Translations under genes and position numbers: made by a program
Notes under the pieces: model-generated
Told to the model about the DNA's origin: nothing
Database searches by the model: none
What the model saw: only the letters and a program-made list of their open reading frames with translations
Assembly (NCBI GenBank): GCA_009783205.1
Contig: WRHO01000017.1
Span: forward strand, 1-38,606
Source of the DNA: Oscillospiraceae bacterium
GTDB taxonomy: Bacteria; Bacillota; Clostridia; Oscillospirales; Ruminococcaceae
DNA length: 38,606 nucleotides
Direction of reading: 5' to 3'
Part shown: positions 1 through 38,606 of the stretch, one piece after another
Numbering within the stretch: position 1 is the stretch's first letter
Layout: every line of letters begins with the position of its first letter

Positions 1-354
1 TTTTTGCACGATAACCAAATCAGCGACCTATCCCCCCTATATGATTTAAAAAATCTACAAATATTAACCTTAAACAACAACCCCATAGACGAATCTCATA
101 TTATCGAGCTTAAATCACATTTGCCCAATTGCAAAATAAGCTACACCCCGACACCCGGTCATGTCCTCGGCAATATTGATGTTACAATTTTTGACGGGAT
201 TGAGATATTGAAGTATTTGGTGGGGATTGAGTCGGTTATTGATGACAGCAAGGTTGCGTTAGAAGCGGCAATGCTGACAGCGGAATCAAAGGCGCGCGGT
301 GAGCCTACGATATTCGATTTTGTGGAGATATTGTTAATATTGGTGGGAATGTAG
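1..354 (+). CDS. Secreted leucine-rich-repeat protein with degenerate dockerin-like tail (3' end only)
   Basis: The frame is open from the first base, so only the C-terminal 117 residues are present. The first ~30 residues are an internalin-type leucine-rich repeat (NQISDLSPLYDLKNLQILTL). After a short Pro/Thr linker come two helix-like halves, TIFDGIEILKYLVG and TIFDFVEILLILVGM, which have the IFDxxxIL spacing of dockerin duplicates but lack most Ca2+-loop acids before the final Asp. The same IFDG/IFDF pair occurs in the secreted proteins at 36514 and 37992, where it follows the signal peptide instead of ending the protein. The function of the whole protein cannot be read from this fragment; cell-surface binding or anchoring is an inference. 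Confidence 0.75.
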   Translation, partial: FLHDNQISDLSPLYDLKNLQILTLNNNPIDESHIIELKSHLPNCKISYTPTPGHVLGNIDVTIFDGIEILKYLVGIESVIDDSKVALEAAMLTAESKARGEPTIFDFVEILLILVGM

Positions 355-9831: not shown

Positions 9832-12036
9832 CTATTTCATGACAATTCCCAAACCGTCAAAGTCCAAATAATCCTCAATAAACTGTTTCCTTAAAAGCTC
9901 GAGCGGAACAAATTCGTTATACTTTCCGAGTATTTGGACTTTTTCGGGCAACGGCAAGTCATAAAGGTTTAAATCACTTTGAAGTATTTCGCAGACAATT
10001 TCCTCCAATTCTGACGCCTCGCCGTCGAATATTACCTCAAGATAGACGCAGGTAATCCACGGGTGTTTGCTTTTAACCCCCTTATAACGGAGTGCGTAGT
10101 TTAATGTTACAATTTGCCTTGTTCCTACCCACGGGAACACGGCAAATTTTTTATTTGATATGGGCGTAACCAAATTCTCGAGAATACCCGAATTACGGGT
10201 TATATACTTAATCTCATCAAGGCGGCTTTTACAGCGGTCGCTCAAATAGTTGTATTCATCATCGGATTTTAGAATGTCTCTTATTTTGCGAACAAGAACG
10301 GTGTGCAATTCGGCGGTGAAATCGACGTCCCAATCAACTACAGATATTCCGGGGACTCGTTTTACAAATATAACCTTTGATTTCTCGTTTACATCTATTG
10401 TTTCCCAGGTGAGCCCCGCGAGCGCGAAACGCGTCCCGACTGGATAAACCTTGTCGACCGTTCCTATTGTTCTGTTTTCATCTTTTACGAGAAGGTATTC
10501 GGTGGCGAGAAAAACGGTAAGGAATTTATGGCTGTTCACGACCTTTTCCCCCTCCGTCCCGATTATCAAGCCGCCGCGCTCTGTCCGTTGAAGCTGTTTT
10601 GAGTAAACCATATATGACAAAAGCTTTTTGTAATCTTCTTGCGGAATATGCTTGAAGCTGCCTAATGATAATACCGTTTGCGCCAACATCGCCGAGGACA
10701 TTTCCCCGTTGCTTTTTAATATGCTCATGGTTTGATGATAAAGCAAATTATAGGGGTAATTATGCGGCGGAATAGGTTCAATCCACCTATCCTTAAGATA
10801 TAGCTCGACAATTGCGATTGTCCTGATAAATTCCCAGTTGACGGGGCCGAGAACATCGTCCGCGTTAATCCTTATACTCTCGACAAAAGTGAACAGTAGC
10901 TGCGGTATTTGTCCCCGCCGACCGCACCGCCCCAATCGTTGGGCAAAGCTCGAGACGTTAAGCGGCGCGCCGACCTGTACCGCCTGGTCAAGCGAGCCTA
11001 TGTCTATTCCAAGCTCTAAGGTTACGGTCGCGCCGGTAACAATTTTTTCGTCGTTAAACTGTGATTTCATTTCGTCTTCTGTGCTTTCGCGGAGTAAAGC
11101 CGAGACATTCCCGTGGTGAACGCGATAAACGTCCGGCGACTTGTTCCTAATTGCGATTTCGCGAAGATTCGCCATTACCAATTCGGTTTCCTCGCGGCTG
11201 TTTGTAAAAATAATGGTCTTTTTATCGAGGGTATGCTTGAACAAATATTCATAATGCTCCCTGTTGCCCATATCGCCCGAGGCGGTATAAATGATATTGC
11301 CGCTCGTATCCTTTTGGGTTAGGTCGCGGTTCTCGGCGTTGTTTACAAATCGCTCGATATGAAGGCGCACCCGCTTTTTCCCCTCTTCCGCAACGGGGGC
11401 GGCACAACCCCTCCCCGTTCCCGTATTAAGCCAATTTTGCGCCAACGAGATATCGCCCAATGTTGCCGACAACCCGATTCGGCGGGGATTGACCCCGTTT
11501 AAAAGCTTCAGCCGTTCGAGAACGCACAATAATTGTGAGCCGCGTATATCCCGCATAAATTGATGCACTTCATCAATAATAACGAATCGCAAATCCGAAA
11601 ATAAAGCTAAACAAGCTCCTCGCTTATTAGACACTAAGCTTTCTAACGATTCCGGCGTTATTTGTAATAAACCCTCGGGGTTTTTTATAAGCTTATTTTT
11701 CCTTGTAACCGACGCGTCCCCGTGCCATTTGGTGACGGGTATATTCGAATCCTCGAGCAATTGTTCGAGACGTTTAAACTGGTCGTTAATAAGTGCCTTA
11801 AGCGGCGAAATATACATTACGCCGACCGAACTCGACGGATTATTGTACAGCTCGGTCAAAACGGGTAAAAACGCCGCTTCGGTTTTTCCCGACGCGGTTC
11901 CCGATGACAAAAGAAGGTTGTCGTCGCTGTCGAATATAACCTCACACGCCGCAACCTGATTCCCGCGCAATTCTTCCCACTTATTGAGGTATATAAAATC
12001 TTGTATAAAAGGCGCGAGTCTTTCAAAAGCGTTCAT
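9832..12036 (-). CDS. Lhr-like superfamily 2 DEVH-box ATP-dependent helicase
   Basis: The N-terminal RecA domain has SSGTASGKTE (Walker A, ~44-53), YISPLKALINDQ (motif Ia), QITPESLES and DEVH (~155-158, motif II). LSATLG is motif III. The second domain has TNSREETE and motif VI QRLGRCGRRG. This layout resembles Lhr and related helicases that act on nucleic-acid duplexes, possibly in repair or RNA metabolism. The C-terminal third has no motif I recognise. It is the last gene of the minus-strand operon, beginning 56 nt after the subtilase stop. Its ribosome binding site AAGGAG lies inside a strong inverted repeat (12042-12104). The exact substrate is unknown. Confidence 0.85.
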   Translation of the reverse strand: MNAFERLAPFIQDFIYLNKWEELRGNQVAACEVIFDSDDNLLLSSGTASGKTEAAFLPVLTELYNNPSSSVGVMYISPLKALINDQFKRLEQLLEDSNIPVTKWHGDASVTRKNKLIKNPEGLLQITPESLESLVSNKRGACLALFSDLRFVIIDEVHQFMRDIRGSQLLCVLERLKLLNGVNPRRIGLSATLGDISLAQNWLNTGTGRGCAAPVAEEGKKRVRLHIERFVNNAENRDLTQKDTSGNIIYTASGDMGNREHYEYLFKHTLDKKTIIFTNSREETELVMANLREIAIRNKSPDVYRVHHGNVSALLRESTEDEMKSQFNDEKIVTGATVTLELGIDIGSLDQAVQVGAPLNVSSFAQRLGRCGRRGQIPQLLFTFVESIRINADDVLGPVNWEFIRTIAIVELYLKDRWIEPIPPHNYPYNLLYHQTMSILKSNGEMSSAMLAQTVLSLGSFKHIPQEDYKKLLSYMVYSKQLQRTERGGLIIGTEGEKVVNSHKFLTVFLATEYLLVKDENRTIGTVDKVYPVGTRFALAGLTWETIDVNEKSKVIFVKRVPGISVVDWDVDFTAELHTVLVRKIRDILKSDDEYNYLSDRCKSRLDEIKYITRNSGILENLVTPISNKKFAVFPWVGTRQIVTLNYALRYKGVKSKHPWITCVYLEVIFDGEASELEEIVCEILQSDLNLYDLPLPEKVQILGKYNEFVPLELLRKQFIEDYLDFDGLGIVMK

Positions 12037-17338: not shown

Positions 17339-20023
17339 TTACTCTGTTAAAAGTTTTTTTATCTCGGACAATTCGCTTAATGCATCCATAGGGGTCATAC
17401 TGTTTAAATCGAGCGATTTGATTTTATTTACGGCGTTATCGCGTTGAATAAGCGCGAAGTCGATTTGACCGCCCGCTTCTTCCTCAATCTGAAGCTGTTC
17501 CTCGAGTTCAATTTTAGAATTAAGCTCCATTTGCTTGAGAACTTTTTTTGATTCGGCTATTACCTTATCGGGAAGTCCCGCTAATTTAGCCACCTCGATT
17601 CCGTAGCTTCTGTCGGTTCCCCCTTCGATTATCTTGTGTAAAAATGTTATCCTTTCGCCGCGCTTTGCTACGTTAACGCTATAGTTTTTTATGCCGGGGT
17701 TTTGTTTTTCGAGTTTTATTAGCTCGTGGTAATGGGTCGCAAAAAGCGTTTTACAACCGATTTTATTGTTGATATATTCGGCGACGGCTTTTGCTATTGA
17801 AACGCCGTCAAAGGTAGATGTCCCCCGCCCTATTTCATCGAGAATGACAAAGCTTTGAGCGGTCGCGCCCGATAAAATCTCCGCAACCTCTAACATTTCT
17901 ACCATAAAAGTAGACTGTCCCGCGCTAAGGTCATCGCTCGCGCCGACTCGCGTGAAAATTTTATCGACGGCTCCGATTAACGCCGATTTTGCCGGGACAA
18001 AGCTCCCCATTTGCGCCATAATGACCGTAAGAGCGATTTGTCGCATAAAAGTCGACTTTCCCGACATATTTGGCCCGGTTATAATCATCAACCGCGTTGC
18101 CCCGCTTTTTGAGTCCGAATCAAGACGACAGTCGTTGGGCGTGAATCCCGCCCCTTCAAATTCGAGATTTTCACACAACATTTTTTCGACGACGGGGTGT
18201 CGCGAATCTTTTATATCTATTACATTATCGAGGGTTATTTCGGGTCGACAATAATTTTCTCTTACCGCGACGTCCGCCAATGAACAAATTAGGTCGATTT
18301 CGGCGACATTGCGCGCCGTAGCGTGGATTTTTTCATATTCGTTTTCAATAAATGCTTTTACGTCTTTTATGATTTCCGCCTCTAACTCAATTGCCTTTTC
18401 CTTAGCCGAAAGAATATCCTCCTCAATTTTTTTAAGCTCGTCGGTGATGTATCTTTCTGCGTTCGCTAAGGTTTGTTTCCTGTGATAATGTTCGGGGGCA
18501 GAATTGATGTTTGATTTGGATATTTCGATATAATATCCGAATACTCTATTATATCCTACCTTTAAGTTTTTAATTCCGGTTGCCGTTTTTTCGCGTTCTT
18601 CTATTTCCGATAATAGTGCGTTTCCGCCGTCGGTTAACCCCCTAAGCCTGTCCAATTCTTGATTAAACCCGTCATTTATATAGCCGCCGTCGCGGGTAAT
18701 TGCGGGCGGTTCGGGAATTATTGAGTTTTCTATAAGCGCGGAAACTTCGGATAAACAGTCGACCCCTCTGTCGAGCTCGGCAAGAAGACTCGACGAAAAG
18801 CCGCTCAAAAGCCCTTTTATAATCGGCAATTGTAAAGAGGCTTTTCCCAATGCGGATATATCTCTCGGATTTGCAGTTTTGTAAACAATCCTCGACATTA
18901 GTCGCTCGAGGTCGTATATGCCCGAAAGGGTTTCGCGTATTTGGGACAGCTTCGGGGTATTTTTTGTCAACTCTTCAACCGCGTCGAGACGTTTTATAAT
19001 TGTAAGGTGATGCTTAAACGGCTCTTGTATTAATTGGCGTATACGGCGTTTTCCCATTGCCGTTTTTGTGCGGTCGAGAACCCACAGGAGCGTGCCTTTT
19101 TTCTCGCGGTTACGCATTGTTTCGGTCAATTCTAAATTGCGGCGCGCGGTCATTCCTATTTCCAAATGCTCGTCCGTAAAGGCGGAGCCGCTTTTAACAG
19201 ATGTAAAGCGAACTTCGAGCGTTTTTTGTGTATGCTCTATGTATTTTAACAAAGCCGATAACGCGCCCGATTCGGCGTTATTTGTGCAGACGGCGTTTTT
19301 GCTTTCTTTGTCAAAAAGCTCGCCGAGTTGTTTTTTTATATATTCGCGGTCGGGAACAAATTGTTCGTCGTTCGCTACCTCCGCGAGACAGGTTGTACGT
19401 GTTCTTAAAAAATCCCCCGCTTTTTTATAATCCATAAAAGCGGGATTAAACATAACCTCGGCGGGCATAAATCGCGCAATATGATTTATAATATCCGCCT
19501 CGTTATCGACCCCGCTTACAAAAAGCGTCCCCGTCGACAAATCGCCGAAGGCGAGTCCCGTTTGTCCCGATTGGTCGGCAAAAAAGCTGCCTATGTAATT
19601 ATTTTCGCCCTCGTTCAACATGGAATCCTGTGTAATTGTTCCGGGGGTGACGAGACGGACAACCTCTCGATTAATTTTACCTTCGGGAGTTTCGATTTGT
19701 TCACACATCGCTACCCTAAAGCCTTTTTTGATTAACCTTTGAATGTATGTCTCGGCGGCGTGATGCGGAACTCCGCACATAGGTGTACCCGCCCTCGCCG
19801 TTAAGGTGAGAGCGAGTTCTTTTGAAATATTCACCGCGTCCTCAAAGAACATTTCATAAAAATCACCGAGCCGGTAAAACAATACATATCCGGGATGCTG
19901 TTCCTTTATATCGAGGTATTGTTGCAGCATAGGGGTTAAATTTGCTTTTTCCGACGTCAAGATTCGCCCGTCAGACGAGCAAAGCCCGTCCTTTGGGCTT
20001 ATCCCTTGTTTAGCTTTCTCCAT
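17339..20023 (-). CDS. mutS: DNA mismatch repair protein MutS
   Basis: MutS recognises mispairs and small loops and starts repair with MutL. The mismatch-reading motif DFYEMF is at about 54-59, and the ABC-type ATPase carries Walker A ITGPNMSGKST (~645-655), Walker B VILDEIGRGTSTFDG and LFATHYHEL. The 894 residues include an N-terminal extension of about 25 residues before the usual LTPMLQQYL. ATG 20023 is preferred to GTG 20035, which lies only 1 nt after AAGGAG. In B. subtilis the order is miaB(ymcB)-ymcA-cotE-mutS-mutL; here miaB and the YmcA/YlbF gene precede it but no mutL follows. The leader contains heptamer repeats. Confidence 0.97.
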   Translation of the reverse strand: MEKAKQGISPKDGLCSSDGRILTSEKANLTPMLQQYLDIKEQHPGYVLFYRLGDFYEMFFEDAVNISKELALTLTARAGTPMCGVPHHAAETYIQRLIKKGFRVAMCEQIETPEGKINREVVRLVTPGTITQDSMLNEGENNYIGSFFADQSGQTGLAFGDLSTGTLFVSGVDNEADIINHIARFMPAEVMFNPAFMDYKKAGDFLRTRTTCLAEVANDEQFVPDREYIKKQLGELFDKESKNAVCTNNAESGALSALLKYIEHTQKTLEVRFTSVKSGSAFTDEHLEIGMTARRNLELTETMRNREKKGTLLWVLDRTKTAMGKRRIRQLIQEPFKHHLTIIKRLDAVEELTKNTPKLSQIRETLSGIYDLERLMSRIVYKTANPRDISALGKASLQLPIIKGLLSGFSSSLLAELDRGVDCLSEVSALIENSIIPEPPAITRDGGYINDGFNQELDRLRGLTDGGNALLSEIEEREKTATGIKNLKVGYNRVFGYYIEISKSNINSAPEHYHRKQTLANAERYITDELKKIEEDILSAKEKAIELEAEIIKDVKAFIENEYEKIHATARNVAEIDLICSLADVAVRENYCRPEITLDNVIDIKDSRHPVVEKMLCENLEFEGAGFTPNDCRLDSDSKSGATRLMIITGPNMSGKSTFMRQIALTVIMAQMGSFVPAKSALIGAVDKIFTRVGASDDLSAGQSTFMVEMLEVAEILSGATAQSFVILDEIGRGTSTFDGVSIAKAVAEYINNKIGCKTLFATHYHELIKLEKQNPGIKNYSVNVAKRGERITFLHKIIEGGTDRSYGIEVAKLAGLPDKVIAESKKVLKQMELNSKIELEEQLQIEEEAGGQIDFALIQRDNAVNKIKSLDLNSMTPMDALSELSEIKKLLTE

Positions 20024-20067: not shown

Positions 20068-20481
20068 GCACCCGCTGCAACCGCCGCAACCGCCGCTTCC
20101 GCAGCCGCCCGCGGGTTGAACTTCGCAGGTTTCGGGGTCTTCCCCGTCACAGCACATACTTATAATCGCGCTTATATCGCGAATCATTTCGTCCATTGCG
20201 TTTTTAGAATCGGTAAATTTAATCATGTTTTCGTTTTCCATAATCTTTGCGTAAACATTTTGCGCTTCCTCGTTAAGCGCGTTGACCTTTTCGGTATCCT
20301 TTACGTCGTCGGGTTTATTCGCCTCCATCGTCAGCTTTTGCCGTATAAGGTTAAACTCGCCTATAACCGCCTGTAGCCCTTCGTCCGCGTCGTTGAGTTC
20401 CTTTGCTTTTTGATACGCCGCGTATCTTTCGTCCGCTTGAATCACCTTGCCGAGCTCCCTCGTCATTTTAATTGTGTCCAT
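20062..20481 (-). CDS. YmcA/YlbF (RicA/RicF) family protein with Cys/Gly-rich tail
   Basis: This 139-residue all-helical protein belongs to the YlbF/YmcA family, whose B. subtilis members form the RicAFT complex that assists RNase Y-dependent mRNA processing and carries Fe-S clusters. The helical part spans ~1-110 (ERYAAYQKAKELNDADEGL). The C terminus has seven cysteines, ending AGGCGSGGCGGCSGCG. Placement directly after miaB and before mutS matches ymcB-ymcA-mutS of B. subtilis, so a YmcA (RicA) identity is favoured by synteny. ATG 20481 is chosen because an upstream ATG (20493) is 1 nt from the AAAGG ribosome binding site. Confidence 0.85.
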   Translation of the reverse strand: MDTIKMTRELGKVIQADERYAAYQKAKELNDADEGLQAVIGEFNLIRQKLTMEANKPDDVKDTEKVNALNEEAQNVYAKIMENENMIKFTDSKNAMDEMIRDISAIISMCCDGEDPETCEVQPAGGCGSGGCGGCSGCG

Positions 20482-20488
20482 GTTTATA

Positions 20489-20503
20489 ACCATTCCTTTC
20501 CGA
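20489..20503 (-). promoter_or_regulatory. Conserved translation-start motif TCGGAAAGGAATGGT (YmcA/YlbF gene)
   Basis: This is the reverse-strand copy of the pattern seen before hpt. Its AAAGG is 13 nt from the chosen ATG 20481; the ATG inside the motif is in frame. Confidence 0.7.
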
Positions 20504-20596
20504 GGTATAAAACCTCTACGAATAAAAACCTATCCGGCTTCGGGGCGGCAGAGCCACCCCTGCCAGCTTTTATTCAAACTTCCTCATTTCTTTCTA

Positions 20597-36297: not shown

Positions 36298-36331
36298 GCT
36301 ATATGGTTAACTCACCTTGCTATATGGTTAA
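36298..36331. repeat. Two 13-bp direct repeats at 21-bp spacing (possible operator)
   Basis: GCTATATGGTTAA occurs at 36298-36310 and 36319-36331, start to start 21 bp, that is two helical turns. Paired direct repeats of this spacing are typical for LytTR-type regulators such as AgrA, and GTTAAG fits half of that consensus. The repeats lie between the divergent smpB promoter (36239) and the secreted-protein promoter (36404), so either could be controlled. Apart from these promoters and repeats, I see no gene in 36204-36513. Confidence 0.6.
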
Positions 36332-36403
36332 GTTTATCCAAAAATGCCCACTTTTTGTACATATTAGCCAAGGTATCCACAGAAATTTCTACCAATTTGT
36401 GCA

Positions 36404-36432
36404 TTGACAAATTAAACTCCCCGTGGTATCAT
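36404..36432 (+). promoter_or_regulatory. Promoter of the secreted-protein locus
   Basis: TTGACA (36404-36409), 17-nt spacer, TATCAT (36427-36432). The predicted start near 36439 gives a leader of about 75 nt that contains the palindrome at 36456-36481. Confidence 0.75.
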
Positions 36433-36455
36433 TAAAGCAGTTAATTATAGTAAAC

Positions 36456-36481
36456 ATAGTATACGCGCGCGCGTATACTAT
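36456..36481. promoter_or_regulatory. Perfect 26-bp palindrome in the leader
   Basis: The 26 bases are exactly self-complementary, with half-site ATAGTATACGCGC. It lies about 17-43 nt downstream of the predicted transcription start. It may be an operator or an mRNA hairpin. Only its right arm (TATACTAT) is kept in the second cassette copy at about 37952. Confidence 0.65.
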
Positions 36482-36780
36482 ACAAACAAAACAATTTTTA
36501 GGAGGATTCTATTATGAAAAAGCTACTATCACCACTGCTCACAGCGGCAATGCTGTGCGCGCTCACACTGCCCGTACTCGCGACCACACCCGCCGACAAT
36601 GCTCAAACGCGCAACGCCGACATCTTCGACTTTATTGACATTCTCGAGGATTGCGTAGGCATGATTGAGCTTACGCCTGTCGAGGTATACGACCATAACA
36701 AGAACGGTGTCGTTGATATCTTTGACGGGATTATTGTGTTGGAGGGGATTATTGGATTGGGGGATTGTGTGACAATGCCG
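36466..36780 (+). repeat. Leader cassette, copy 1 (RBS, signal peptide, dockerin-like module)
   Basis: This segment is about 95% identical by eye to 37949-38267. Differences are about ten substitutions, mostly synonymous, a 1-nt change in a T run of the leader and a 9-nt insertion in copy 2. Identity stops abruptly after ATGCCG on the 3' side and at GCGC-TATACTATAC on the 5' side. Confidence 0.85.
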
Positions 36781-37503
36781 AGGGTGAATAATCAAGGTGA
36801 TGATGACGACCAAGGCGGGACAGAGCCGCCTGTGACTACAATTGGTGTACCGGAGACGACAGTTTTAGTTGATGAGACAGAGCCGGTTGTACCTGCTACG
36901 AACGCGCCGGAGACTACTACACCGCCGGAGAATACAACAGGTGTTACGGAGACTACAGAGGAACCACCGACTACAACACAGTCTGCAACTGATGAAGATG
37001 TTGATTTCGGTGTTGTTAATTATGCGTATATAGGTTTATCATTTGAAGTTGAAGCGAAAGTTTTATATGGACAGAAATTTAAAATTTATACAGCACAAAC
37101 ATTAGAAGAGTATAAATTTATTACTCGAATTGTTAATAAAGGAAATGTAGAATATGACTTTTTAAATTTTGATGTCGATGAAAGTTTTTTTATAGATAAA
37201 GCAATCATTTTAGTTTATCGTGTTTGGTCAAATGCAGGCGGTTTTACAATTATAGATTCACTAAAAAGAGAGCAAAATCAATTAATTATCAATTCTACAT
37301 CAATAAGTCCCTGTAGTTCGGATGACGCAATAACATTTTATCGAATTGCTTTATCTATAGATAAAAATAACATCAATGACATAGATGATATTATTTTTGA
37401 TGATAAACTATCAGATTTTTGTAAATGTGGTAGTTGTGATTATAATAATATCATTGAAAATTTTACAAAATGGCGTAATAACTGGTTAGAATCTAAAAAA
37501 TAA
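36514..37503 (+). CDS. Secreted protein: signal peptide, dockerin-like pair, Thr-rich linker, unknown C-terminal domain
   Basis: The signal peptide is about residues 1-23. The first dockerin-like half, DNAQTRNADIFD, is degenerate; the second, DHNKNGVVDIFD, has all Ca2+-loop residues (D1, N3, N5, D9, D12) and is followed by GIIVLEGIIG. A Thr/Pro/Glu-rich linker (~95-165) leads to a ~165-residue C-terminal domain with beta-rich pattern (AIILVYRVWSNAGGFTII) that loosely recalls PrcB-type domains, and an end with CKCGSC. The DNA switches from the GC-richer style of the cassette to clearly AT-rich from about 37000, so the protein looks chimeric. AGGAGG lies 8 nt before ATG 36514. The function is unknown; cell-surface or complex attachment is an inference. 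Confidence 0.8.
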   Translation: MKKLLSPLLTAAMLCALTLPVLATTPADNAQTRNADIFDFIDILEDCVGMIELTPVEVYDHNKNGVVDIFDGIIVLEGIIGLGDCVTMPRVNNQGDDDDQGGTEPPVTTIGVPETTVLVDETEPVVPATNAPETTTPPENTTGVTETTEEPPTTTQSATDEDVDFGVVNYAYIGLSFEVEAKVLYGQKFKIYTAQTLEEYKFITRIVNKGNVEYDFLNFDVDESFFIDKAIILVYRVWSNAGGFTIIDSLKREQNQLIINSTSISPCSSDDAITFYRIALSIDKNNINDIDDIIFDDKLSDFCKCGSCDYNNIIENFTKWRNNWLESKK

Positions 37504-37521
37504 TAAACGGAGGTTAAAATA

Positions 37522-37995
37522 ATGTTAAAAAATAAAAGGATTCGCATACTAAGCGTATGTTTAGCTTTATCTATGCTTTTTTGCACATTGGTTACAAGCG
37601 GAGCAGAAATAGCAGATAGCAAAACGAAAGAAAAAATTGTTACGGATTTAGAGGAAGTAATTGAGATTAGTCCGGAAGATAAGATAGACCCTGCGTTGCA
37701 AGAAATTATGGAGAATTCTAAAGCAACAGAGAAAATTCCTGTATCAATTTGGTTGACCGATATAGACCAAGAGGCAGTTGATAGAACTGTTGAGAGAAAA
37801 ACAGGGCTTACTCGTGATAATCTTGAGGTTGTAAAAGAAAATATTTCTGATGATTTAGCTTTGGAAATAATGTCTTTATCGGAAGATAGTGTTATTGATA
37901 AAAAGGTTGAAAAAGAATTTGATGATTATATGGAGCGTACATCAAAGGCGCATATACTATACAAACAAAACAATTTTAGGAGGATTCTATTATGA
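37522..37995 (+). pseudogene. Truncated secreted-protein gene, cut by cassette copy 2
   Basis: GGAGG precedes ATG 37522, 18 nt after the previous stop. Residues 1-~28 are a signal peptide; residues ~50-142 (KIPVSIWLTDIDQEAVDRTV, TGLTRDNLEVV, YMERTSKA) resemble the N-terminal region of large secreted clostridial proteins that I recall only from memory. At about 37949 the sequence switches into the untranslated leader of the cassette, so the final ~14 residues (HILYKQNNFRRILL) are read from a ribosome-binding-site region in the wrong frame and the stop overlaps the next start codon. The original gene was probably much longer. The DNA is AT-rich like the preceding 3' domain. It may be expressed as a short secreted remnant. 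Confidence 0.7.
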
Positions 37996-38267
37996 AAAAG
38001 CTACTATCACTACTGCTCACAGCGGCAATGCTGTGCGCGCTCACACTGCCCGCGACCTTCGCAACCGCGACCACGCCCGCCGACAATGCTCAAACACGCA
38101 ACGCCGACATCTTCGATTTTATTGACATTCTTGAGGATTGCGTAGGCATGGTTGAGTTAACGCCTGTCGAAGTATACGACCATAACAAGAACGGTGTCGT
38201 TGATATCTTTGACGGGATTATTGTGTTGGAGGGGATTATTGGATTGGGGGATTGTGTGATAATGCCG
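37949..38267 (+). repeat. Leader cassette, copy 2
   Basis: This is the second copy of 36466-36780. It keeps the ribosome binding site, signal peptide and dockerin-like module but not the promoter or the left arm of the palindrome, so its gene depends on read-through from upstream. Confidence 0.85.
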
Positions 38268-38606
38268 AAAGAAAAAATAATGCTGTCGCCTTGTCCGGGG
38301 TGCGGTGATGAACGTTCTTATTTCCCTATATCTATTGATGATGATTTCCTTGATGATACCATATTCGTTGTATTGACGCATTGTATCAGCATAAGGGATA
38401 ACAGAGACTGGACTGTAGAAGATTTTAAGAATATCGGTGCTGTTGTGGTCGAAGATAATTTCAGAGCATCTAATGAGAATTGGGAATTATTTCAAGCCGG
38501 AAGAGGAAACGAAACCATGATTAATTGGAATCAATTTAGGAGATTGTTGACTATCAAGCTTGATAAACACAGTAAAGAAAATGTATTGTGGGCACTTGAA
38601 CAACTT
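37992..38606 (+). CDS. Secreted dockerin-like protein, paralogue of 36514, 5' part only
   Basis: The frame runs off the window after 205 codons. Residues 1-~92 nearly repeat the protein at 36514 (three extra residues, ATFATATTPAD, at the signal-peptide end). After MPK the sequence is unrelated: CPGCG, then DDTIFVVLTHCISIRD, DWTVEDFKNIGAVVVED and LLTIKLDKHSKENVLWALEQL split over ~100 residues. The ENVLxALEQL end resembles the helix of I9-like propeptides that precede S8 protease domains (compare EEAIALLNADPAVEIAEPDY in the subtilase here), so the missing part may be a protease; this is inference. ATG 37992 follows AGGAGG. Confidence 0.75.
   Translation, partial: MKKLLSLLLTAAMLCALTLPATFATATTPADNAQTRNADIFDFIDILEDCVGMVELTPVEVYDHNKNGVVDIFDGIIVLEGIIGLGDCVIMPKEKIMLSPCPGCGDERSYFPISIDDDFLDDTIFVVLTHCISIRDNRDWTVEDFKNIGAVVVEDNFRASNENWELFQAGRGNETMINWNQFRRLLTIKLDKHSKENVLWALEQL

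What the first reader, a model, noticed from the sequence alone, without database searches (positions are those of the whole stretch)
36466..38267. Leader-cassette duplication: one signal-peptide/dockerin-like unit joined to different 3' domains
A ~315-bp unit (ribosome binding site, signal peptide, two-loop dockerin-like module) occurs twice with about 95% identity and sharp boundaries, followed by unrelated C-terminal coding sequence. Copy 2 has landed inside another secreted-protein gene. Substitutions are mostly synonymous. This looks like a recombination system that gives new extracellular domains a ready leader and attachment module, or an expression site that changes its cargo.
Basis: partly seen in the sequence, partly recalled or inferred. 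Interest (0 to 1): 0.75.

Follow-up and report, generated by a model that had tools for sequence, protein, structure and literature searches.

The report
Secreted proteins sharing a copied leader
In an uncultured gut-type bacterium, one front piece of a gene (translation start, export tag and a small docking-like module) has been copied onto at least five secreted-protein genes that differ further on, which shows how such bacteria can exchange the front ends of exported proteins.

Summary
The repeat is real: copies at 36469-36781 and 37948-38268 run into unrelated coding sequence. It is not a single tandem duplication. The same genome holds five full copies, two contig-edge fragments and two shorter leader-only versions. 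Their edges differ on both sides, so no fixed recombination site is visible. Shared variants are reticulate (12 of 15 pairs of events fail the four-gamete test), and synonymous divergence rises along one gene pair (cassette 0.14, next module 0.37, last module 0.62), as expected if 5' ends are exchanged or homogenised by recombination. The copy-2 cargo is a subtilase propeptide; its relatives in two sister species begin with a plain leader. A sister species carries its own, different, near-identical cassette on other cargo. I found no evidence for an expression switch. Closest known processes: terminal reassortment and promoter reuse with gene conversion, here on Sec leaders with a dockerin-like module in a genome with no detected cohesin. 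Caveats: metagenome assembly; copy 2 lies within 0.7 kb of a contig end; same-species strains, long reads and structure models were not available.

The parts
36313..36468 (+). Upstream region of copy 1, shared with the C2 copy, with a sigma-70-like site (TTGACA, 17 nt, TATCAT, TG before it) at 36404-36432
   Evidence: 94.9% identity over 473 bp (upstream plus cassette) with C2; promoter scan searches find the same 11-of-12 site in both. The scan finds 19 sites in the region against 8.6 expected, so a single match is weak evidence.
36456..36481 (.). Perfect 26-bp palindrome (13-nt arms); its centre coincides with the left limit of homology to copy 2
   Evidence: alignment starts at 36469
36469..36781 (+). 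Cassette copy 1: 5' untranslated stretch, ribosome binding site, signal peptide, dockerin-like module
36514..37503 (+). Gene of copy 1 (329 aa): cassette, Thr/Pro-rich linker, cargo domain A of unknown family
   Evidence: no Pfam family at E <= 1; cargo homologous to cargo of the C5 and C2 copies
37006..37503 (+). Cargo domain A of copy 1, GC 25.5% (cassette 51.1%)
   Evidence: lower than all 1421 windows of the rest of the contig (minimum 34.1%) and all 2010 windows of ten other stretches of this genome (minimum 28.7%)
37522..37995 (+). ORF2: signal peptide and truncated propeptide-like region of another secreted protein; native sequence up to about 37950, then read-in of the copy-2 5' stretch
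   Evidence: homologue in C6 and in sister genome G067, where the frame goes on into a weak Peptidase_S8 match (PF00082 E 0.0014, below cut-off)
37948..38268 (+). Cassette copy 2
37992..38606 (+). Gene of copy 2, open at the contig end
38269..38606 (+). Cargo of copy 2: start of a subtilase propeptide (catalytic domain lies beyond the contig end)
   Evidence: homologous to propeptides of G006 (L180:1065-3392-) and G016 (L181:468-2966+), both Peptidase_S8 (PF00082 E 6.5e-28 and 2.2e-28):

Best explanation
A native 5' gene segment (ribosome binding site, Sec signal peptide, dockerin-like module; in some copies also the promoter) is copied by ordinary recombination (ectopic homologous recombination or gene conversion, with occasional illegitimate joins) onto the front of unrelated secreted-protein genes, replacing their own leaders, and copies then go on exchanging sequence with each other. 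Shown: the dispersed copies, different cargos, variable edges, reticulate variants, the step in synonymous divergence, and sister-species relatives of two cargos with other leaders. Inferred: that the carrier process is general recombination and that selection keeps the cassette because it gives expression, export and a common docking-like module to cargo, some of it AT-rich and probably acquired. Copy 2 most likely arose when the cassette replaced the leader of a subtilase gene, and a deletion fused its 5' stretch to a truncated neighbour (ORF2).
For: Five full copies, two contig-edge fragments and two leader-only versions in one genome. Left edges lie >200, 53, 44, 29 and 3 bp before the ATG and right edges about +28, +92, +254 to +279, so ends are not fixed. 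Same gene pair, C2 and C5-end copies: pS 0.14 in the cassette (89 codons), 0.37 in module X (99), 0.62 in the last module (139); cargo A of copy 1 against C5-end 0.75 (149). 12 of 15 pairs of six hand-collapsed variant events show all four combinations; 92 of 136 informative column pairs conflict, permutation value 0.012 with gap columns counted singly. Leader exchange: the subtilase of copy 2 and module X have plain leaders in sister genomes. GC break 0.51 to 0.255 at copy 1. Sister genome G006 has its own cassette at 95.7% over 209 bp and 100% over 117 bp on other contigs, with different cargo, and its C108 gene ends in an out-of-frame piece of module X (94.7% over 113 bp). G016 has an 80% leader duplication over 160 bp with different 3' sequence.
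Against: Metagenome assembly: C2, C5-end, C15 and C30 copies lie at contig edges and copy 2 ends 338 bp from one, so mis-joins inside the 0.3-kb repeat are possible. pS of 0.11-0.20 between cassettes means the copying is not very recent, and strong constraint (pN 0.00-0.03) could have slowed loss of similarity. With only five full copies, recurrent mutation could account for part of the four-gamete conflicts. The C5-internal copy shows no GC break (0.504 on both sides). G006 C108 also joins a leader-dockerin unit to a domain weakly similar to the copy-2 cargo (E 0.001), so that pairing may be older than the exchange.
Confidence: 0.66

Rival explanations
1. Plain duplication of whole genes followed by fast divergence or replacement of the 3' part under diversifying selection; the 5' part is only strongly conserved.
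For: Copy 1, C2 and C5-end share homologous cargo modules, and the dockerin-like part is under purifying selection.
Against: Synonymous divergence, which protein constraint should not hold down, steps from 0.14 to 0.62 along one gene pair. Copy 2, C5-internal and the leader-only C16 and C15 genes have unrelated cargo and unrelated upstream sequence.
Confidence: 0.17
2. A phase- or antigen-variation system like the Vpma/Vsp loci of mycoplasmas, in which a promoter-leader unit is moved in front of alternative cargos by a site-specific recombinase acting in the 5' untranslated region.
For: Conserved 5' stretch and signal peptide with divergent cargo, a perfect 26-bp palindrome whose centre is the left edge of copy-2 homology, and a large serine recombinase gene (PF00239 E 7.6e-36) about 1 kb from the C15 copy.
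Against: At least copy 1 and C2 carry the same promoter-like site; edges vary; copies are dispersed over several contigs and not clustered at one locus; the palindrome is not conserved in the copies. Only the C15 copy was seen beside an apparently full-length recombinase.
Confidence: 0.06
3. Assembly artefact: repeat-induced mis-joins created some cassette-cargo pairs, above all copy 2.
For: Short contigs, many breaks in the cassette, copy 2 within 0.7 kb of a contig end.
Against: Each copy has private variants. The left junction of copy 2 shares only a few bases with the flank, too little for a usual assembler overlap. Copies in other genomes of the genus, assembled separately, show the same pattern with another sequence. 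An artefact would not create the cassette family, only wrong pairings.
Confidence: 0.08
4. A transposable or integron-like element with the cassette as cargo.
For: Dispersed copies; IS-like and recombinase genes occur near two of the family loci.
Against: No constant ends or flanking repeats were seen in the alignment of copies; no match in 72,556 plasmid or 50,697 phage records; one weak partial hit in viral contigs.
Confidence: 0.03

Closest known systems
Terminal reassortment of type III effectors (Stavrinides et al. 2006; recalled, seen only as a citation and in passages of PMC6460904)
   Same: An N-terminal secretion signal is shared by otherwise unrelated secreted proteins, giving reticulate chimeric families.
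   Different: Here a Sec signal peptide plus a dockerin-like module in a Gram-positive-type gut bacterium, several near-identical copies inside one genome, with ongoing homogenisation.
Vpma/Vsp/Vsa variable surface proteins of mycoplasmas (passages of PMC2268961)
   Same: 5' untranslated region and signal peptide conserved, downstream coding sequence divergent; in Vsa a promoter-RBS-5' coding unit is placed before silent 3' ends.
   Different: Those are clustered loci with one active promoter, a recombinase gene and a defined recombination site; here dispersed, several promoters, variable edges, no switch shown.
Promoter reuse / mobile promoters in prokaryotes (recalled; seen only as reference titles in PMC9208149)
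   Same: Upstream regulatory DNA duplicated in front of unrelated genes within a genome.
   Different: The copied unit includes about 270 bp of coding sequence.
Dockerin-bearing proteins in cohesin-poor ruminococci such as Ruminococcus albus 8 (passages of PMC4081043)
   Same: Dockerin-type modules on varied secreted proteins without a detected cohesin partner.
   Different: The module here is N-terminal, has one clear calcium-loop motif, fails the Pfam model, and is what is copied at DNA level.

Membership tests
Dockerin type I (PF00404) | Match to the Pfam Dockerin_1 model | tested here: not met
   No Dockerin_1 hit for both window genes at E <= 1 nor for the C2, C5-end, C5-internal and C16 genes at E <= 0.5. 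The G016 subtilase does carry one at its C-terminus (E 8.9e-11).
Dockerin type I (PF00404) | Two calcium-binding loop-helix repeats | tested here: inconclusive
   Second repeat has the loop (YDHNKNGVVDIFD), first lacks it. A profile of 14 modules finds calcium-loop proteins in the PDB, led by a hyaluronidase module (E 0.0089) and several dockerins (E 0.047 and weaker), over the second loop only. No structure could be predicted.
Cellulosome-type dockerin-cohesin system | Cohesin partner in the same genome | tested here: not met
   PF00963: 0 candidates in G000 (96.6% complete); 27 of 71 genomes of the genus are over the cut-off.
Terminal reassortment | Shared N-terminal secretion signal at DNA level on unrelated C-terminal parts | tested here: met
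Terminal reassortment | Homologous cargo carries a different leader elsewhere | tested here: met
   Subtilase in G006 and G016, module X in G016
Vpma/Vsp-type phase variation | Single active promoter and clustered silent genes | tested here: not met
   Copies on several contigs; same promoter-like site at copy 1 and C2
Vpma/Vsp-type phase variation | Rearranged junctions within one population | not testable with these tools
   No reads and no same-species strains held
Subtilase S8 (cargo of copy 2) | Catalytic domain | not testable with these tools
   Contig ends in the propeptide; two sister-genome relatives have PF00082

The most novel reading that the evidence does not exclude
A lineage-wide, still active leader-capture process: species of this uncultured genus each keep their own homogenised 5' cassette (promoter, leader, dockerin-like module), and perhaps 3' cassettes too, and repeatedly install them on acquired secreted-protein domains, so that new extracellular cargo is at once expressed, exported and tagged for one common surface partner.
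Probability: 0.2. Interest if true: 0.75.

Novelty: new variant of a known kind. Interest (0 to 1): 0.52.

Why it matters
If right, it is a clear natural case of front-end exchange among Sec-secreted proteins within one bacterial genome, seen independently in at least one sister species. It makes a testable route for how newly acquired extracellular domains become expressed, exported and tagged, and points to a docking-like module whose partner is unknown because no cohesin was detected.

Tried and rejected
A single old tandem duplication was rejected. Horizontal spread of the cassette itself: no DNA match in plasmids or phages, none confirmed in the named species genomes for the cassette protein (own and near genomes may be left out there), one weak partial hit in viral contigs, and in the 70 other genomes of the genus only 31-49 bp start-region matches in six. 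The 5' stretch as a separate element: the 26-base pattern occurs only at four cassette places. Synteny in named relatives: 80 loci fetched with the neighbouring phosphorylase contained no match to SmpB, the window cassette, its cargos or ORF2, so they did not help. Family searches for cargo A gave no Pfam hit and one non-significant PDB hit; my private guess of a PrcB-like fold is recalled and unconfirmed. The Ada-like metal-site guess for the C5-internal cargo is below cut-off (E 0.054). Rfam found nothing in the window, L070 and L016. Literature searches listed no paper describing this cassette or process in these bacteria; only the listed top rows were looked at.

Dropped rows: the four-gamete count uses six events that I coded by hand; I left out column 48 (a gap at a contig end in one copy) and the tail columns 346-352, and treated neighbouring columns as one event. 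Fragments (C15, C30) and leader-only genes were left out of the recombination counts because they are too short.

Full report
What is there. The window is the whole contig C17 of a 1.91-Mb metagenome-assembled genome in 49 contigs, 96.6% complete. The nearest named relatives of a neighbouring phosphorylase are uncultured Oscillospiraceae/Ruminococcus-type Clostridia from animal and insect guts at 78-79% identity (some records bear other labels). The two copies named in the finding are real: 322 aligned columns at 92.9%. Copy 1 encodes a signal peptide, a dockerin-like module, a Thr/Pro linker and cargo domain A; copy 2 has the same front end on another cargo and runs off the contig.

Not a pair but a family. 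A DNA search of the same genome finds five full copies: copies 1 and 2, C2 (183420-183765, minus), C5-end (74648-74942, minus) and C5-internal (11500-11782, plus); fragments at the edges of C15 (135 bp) and C30 (58 bp); and shorter matches at C16 (95 bp) and C15:895-925 (31 bp). A 28-nt leader-start pattern with up to 3 mismatches hits 8 places, all at 0-1 mismatch, with none for the reversed control. Copy 1 and C2 share at least 200 bp upstream up to the end of C2, including a TTGACA-17-TATCAT site. Copy 2, C5-internal and C15 have other upstream sequence. No plus-strand promoter-like site was found between 37446 and copy 2; C5-internal and C15 were not scanned. C30 and C5-end share a 28-bp identical overlap at their edges, so they may be one gene; this is inference.

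Edges. Taken from the local alignments, homology begins >200 bp (copy 1 against C2), 53 bp (C15), 44 bp (copy 2), 29 bp (C5-internal) and 3 bp (C16, C15 lipoprotein gene) before the ATG, and ends about +28 (C15 lipoprotein gene), +92 (C16), +254 (C5-internal) and +268 to +279 (others). No constant end is visible. The left limit of copy 2 falls on the centre of a perfect 26-bp palindrome at copy 1, which the other copies keep only in part.

Cargo. In copy 1 the cargo is a domain without a Pfam hit at E <= 1. C2 carries a module here called X and a domain related to cargo A; C5-end carries X and two such domains. C5-internal ends in a short Cys-containing domain without a significant hit. C16 has leader only, then an ORF2-like region and C-terminal dockerin-like repeats. 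The cargo of copy 2 matches 2 of 70 other genomes of the genus (G006, G016); both relatives are Peptidase_S8 proteins (E 6.5e-28, 2.2e-28) in which a plain leader runs directly into the propeptide, with no dockerin-like module in between. Module X likewise follows a plain leader in G016. These two comparisons are the direct evidence for leader exchange. A complication is G006 C108, a leader-dockerin gene whose next domain is weakly similar to the copy-2 cargo (24% over 96 residues, E 0.001).

ORF2. The frame interrupted by copy 2 has a homologue in C6 of the same genome and one in G067 (1 of 70 others). In G067 the frame continues into a weak Peptidase_S8 match (E 0.0014, below cut-off). ORF2 is therefore probably a truncated propeptide region. 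In C6 the homologue is also cut short and continues into the C-terminal part of Maf (PF02545 E 1.7e-11, residues 99-162). So the flanks of copy 2 belong to two different genes, and insertion is not required.

Recombination signal. In the same two genes, C2 and C5-end, synonymous difference is 0.14 in the cassette, 0.37 in module X and 0.62 in the last module; cargo A of copy 1 against C5-end is 0.75. In the dockerin-like part over ten pairs, pS is 0.11-0.20 and pN 0.00-0.03, so the module is under purifying selection and the copying is not very recent. Six hand-collapsed variant events give 12 conflicting pairs of 15; on raw columns 92 of 136 pairs conflict and compatible columns cluster (0.012 of permutations as low, but gap columns are counted singly). 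Recurrent mutation cannot be fully excluded with five sequences. GC falls from 0.511 in the cassette to 0.255 in cargo A, lower than any of 1421 windows in the rest of the contig and 2010 in ten other own stretches; cargo GC of other copies is 0.37-0.41, but C5-internal shows no break (0.504).

Sister species. The cassette DNA is absent from the 70 other genus genomes apart from 31-49 bp start-region matches in six; at protein level 7 of the 70 have a match at E <= 1e-4. G006 has its own cassette: full in C108, 95.7% over 209 bp up to the edge of C92 and 100% over 117 bp from the edge of C18, where module X follows; that C92 and C18 are halves of one copy is inference. The C108 gene ends in an out-of-frame piece of module X (94.7% over 113 bp). 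G016 has an 80% leader duplication over 160 bp with other 3' sequence; the aligned start codon of that copy is ATA, so it may start elsewhere or be decayed. In a 14-row tree the own C6 leader groups with G010 and G016 leaders (96/96), apart from the window family, while both leader types carry related cargo; most other branches are unresolved.

Dockerin question. The module has one clear calcium-loop motif; it misses the Pfam model and its profile finds calcium-loop and dockerin chains in the PDB only weakly (E 0.0089 at best, second loop only). No cohesin was detected in this genome, while 27 of 71 in the genus pass the cut-off. Dockerins without cohesins are described for Ruminococcus albus 8 (passages of PMC4081043).

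Mechanism and verdict. The best-supported account is exchange of gene fronts by general recombination followed by homogenisation, kept by selection for export and a common module. A site-specific switch of the Vpma type (passages of PMC2268961) is disfavoured by several promoters, dispersed places and variable edges, but within-population rearrangement could not be tested. The same stretches also contain shared 3' ends and shared upstream leaders of housekeeping genes, so exchange of gene ends may be broader than this cassette. I rate it a new variant of a known kind.

Noticed in passing
window 20476-20591 and L070:7956-8073: A 118-bp upstream block at 90.7%, including ribosome binding site and first codons (MVINMD), is shared by a YlbF-like gene in the window and the DNA ligase gene on C24 (names from reading the proteins); no Rfam family reaches its cut-off.
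   Followed up: partly
window 19954-20011 and L069:6478-6535: A 58-bp block at 93% lies in the 5' coding part of the mutS-like gene and near the start of an ORF on C6; it looks like a small dispersed repeat.
   Followed up: partly
L014:9688-9848, L014:7079-7139 and L016:1831-1990: Shared 3' gene ends: the last half of a C-terminal dockerin-like pair, stop, terminator-like hairpin and further downstream sequence, 88.8% over 161 bp, plus a 61-bp piece at 100%. Gene back ends seem to be exchanged too.
   Followed up: partly
L054, L057, L059 (sister genome G006): A roughly 80-bp unit with ribosome binding site and start codon is repeated, in part in tandem, upstream of three secreted-protein genes.
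   Followed up: partly
L069:1380-1889 (own contig C6): An ORF2-like secreted N-terminus is fused to the C-terminal part of Maf; an IS-like transposase gene and a truncated serine recombinase lie nearby (names partly recalled).
   Followed up: partly
L014:973-2589 (own contig C15): Large serine recombinase gene about 1 kb from the C15 cassette and divergent from a lipoprotein gene that shares the leader start.
   Followed up: partly
71 genomes of the genus: Cohesins are patchy: 27 of 71 genomes pass the Pfam cut-off, the window genome and G006, G010 and G016 show none.
   Followed up: no
window 1-354: The left end of the contig holds the C-terminus of a leucine-rich-repeat protein with two dockerin-like IFD repeats.
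   Followed up: no
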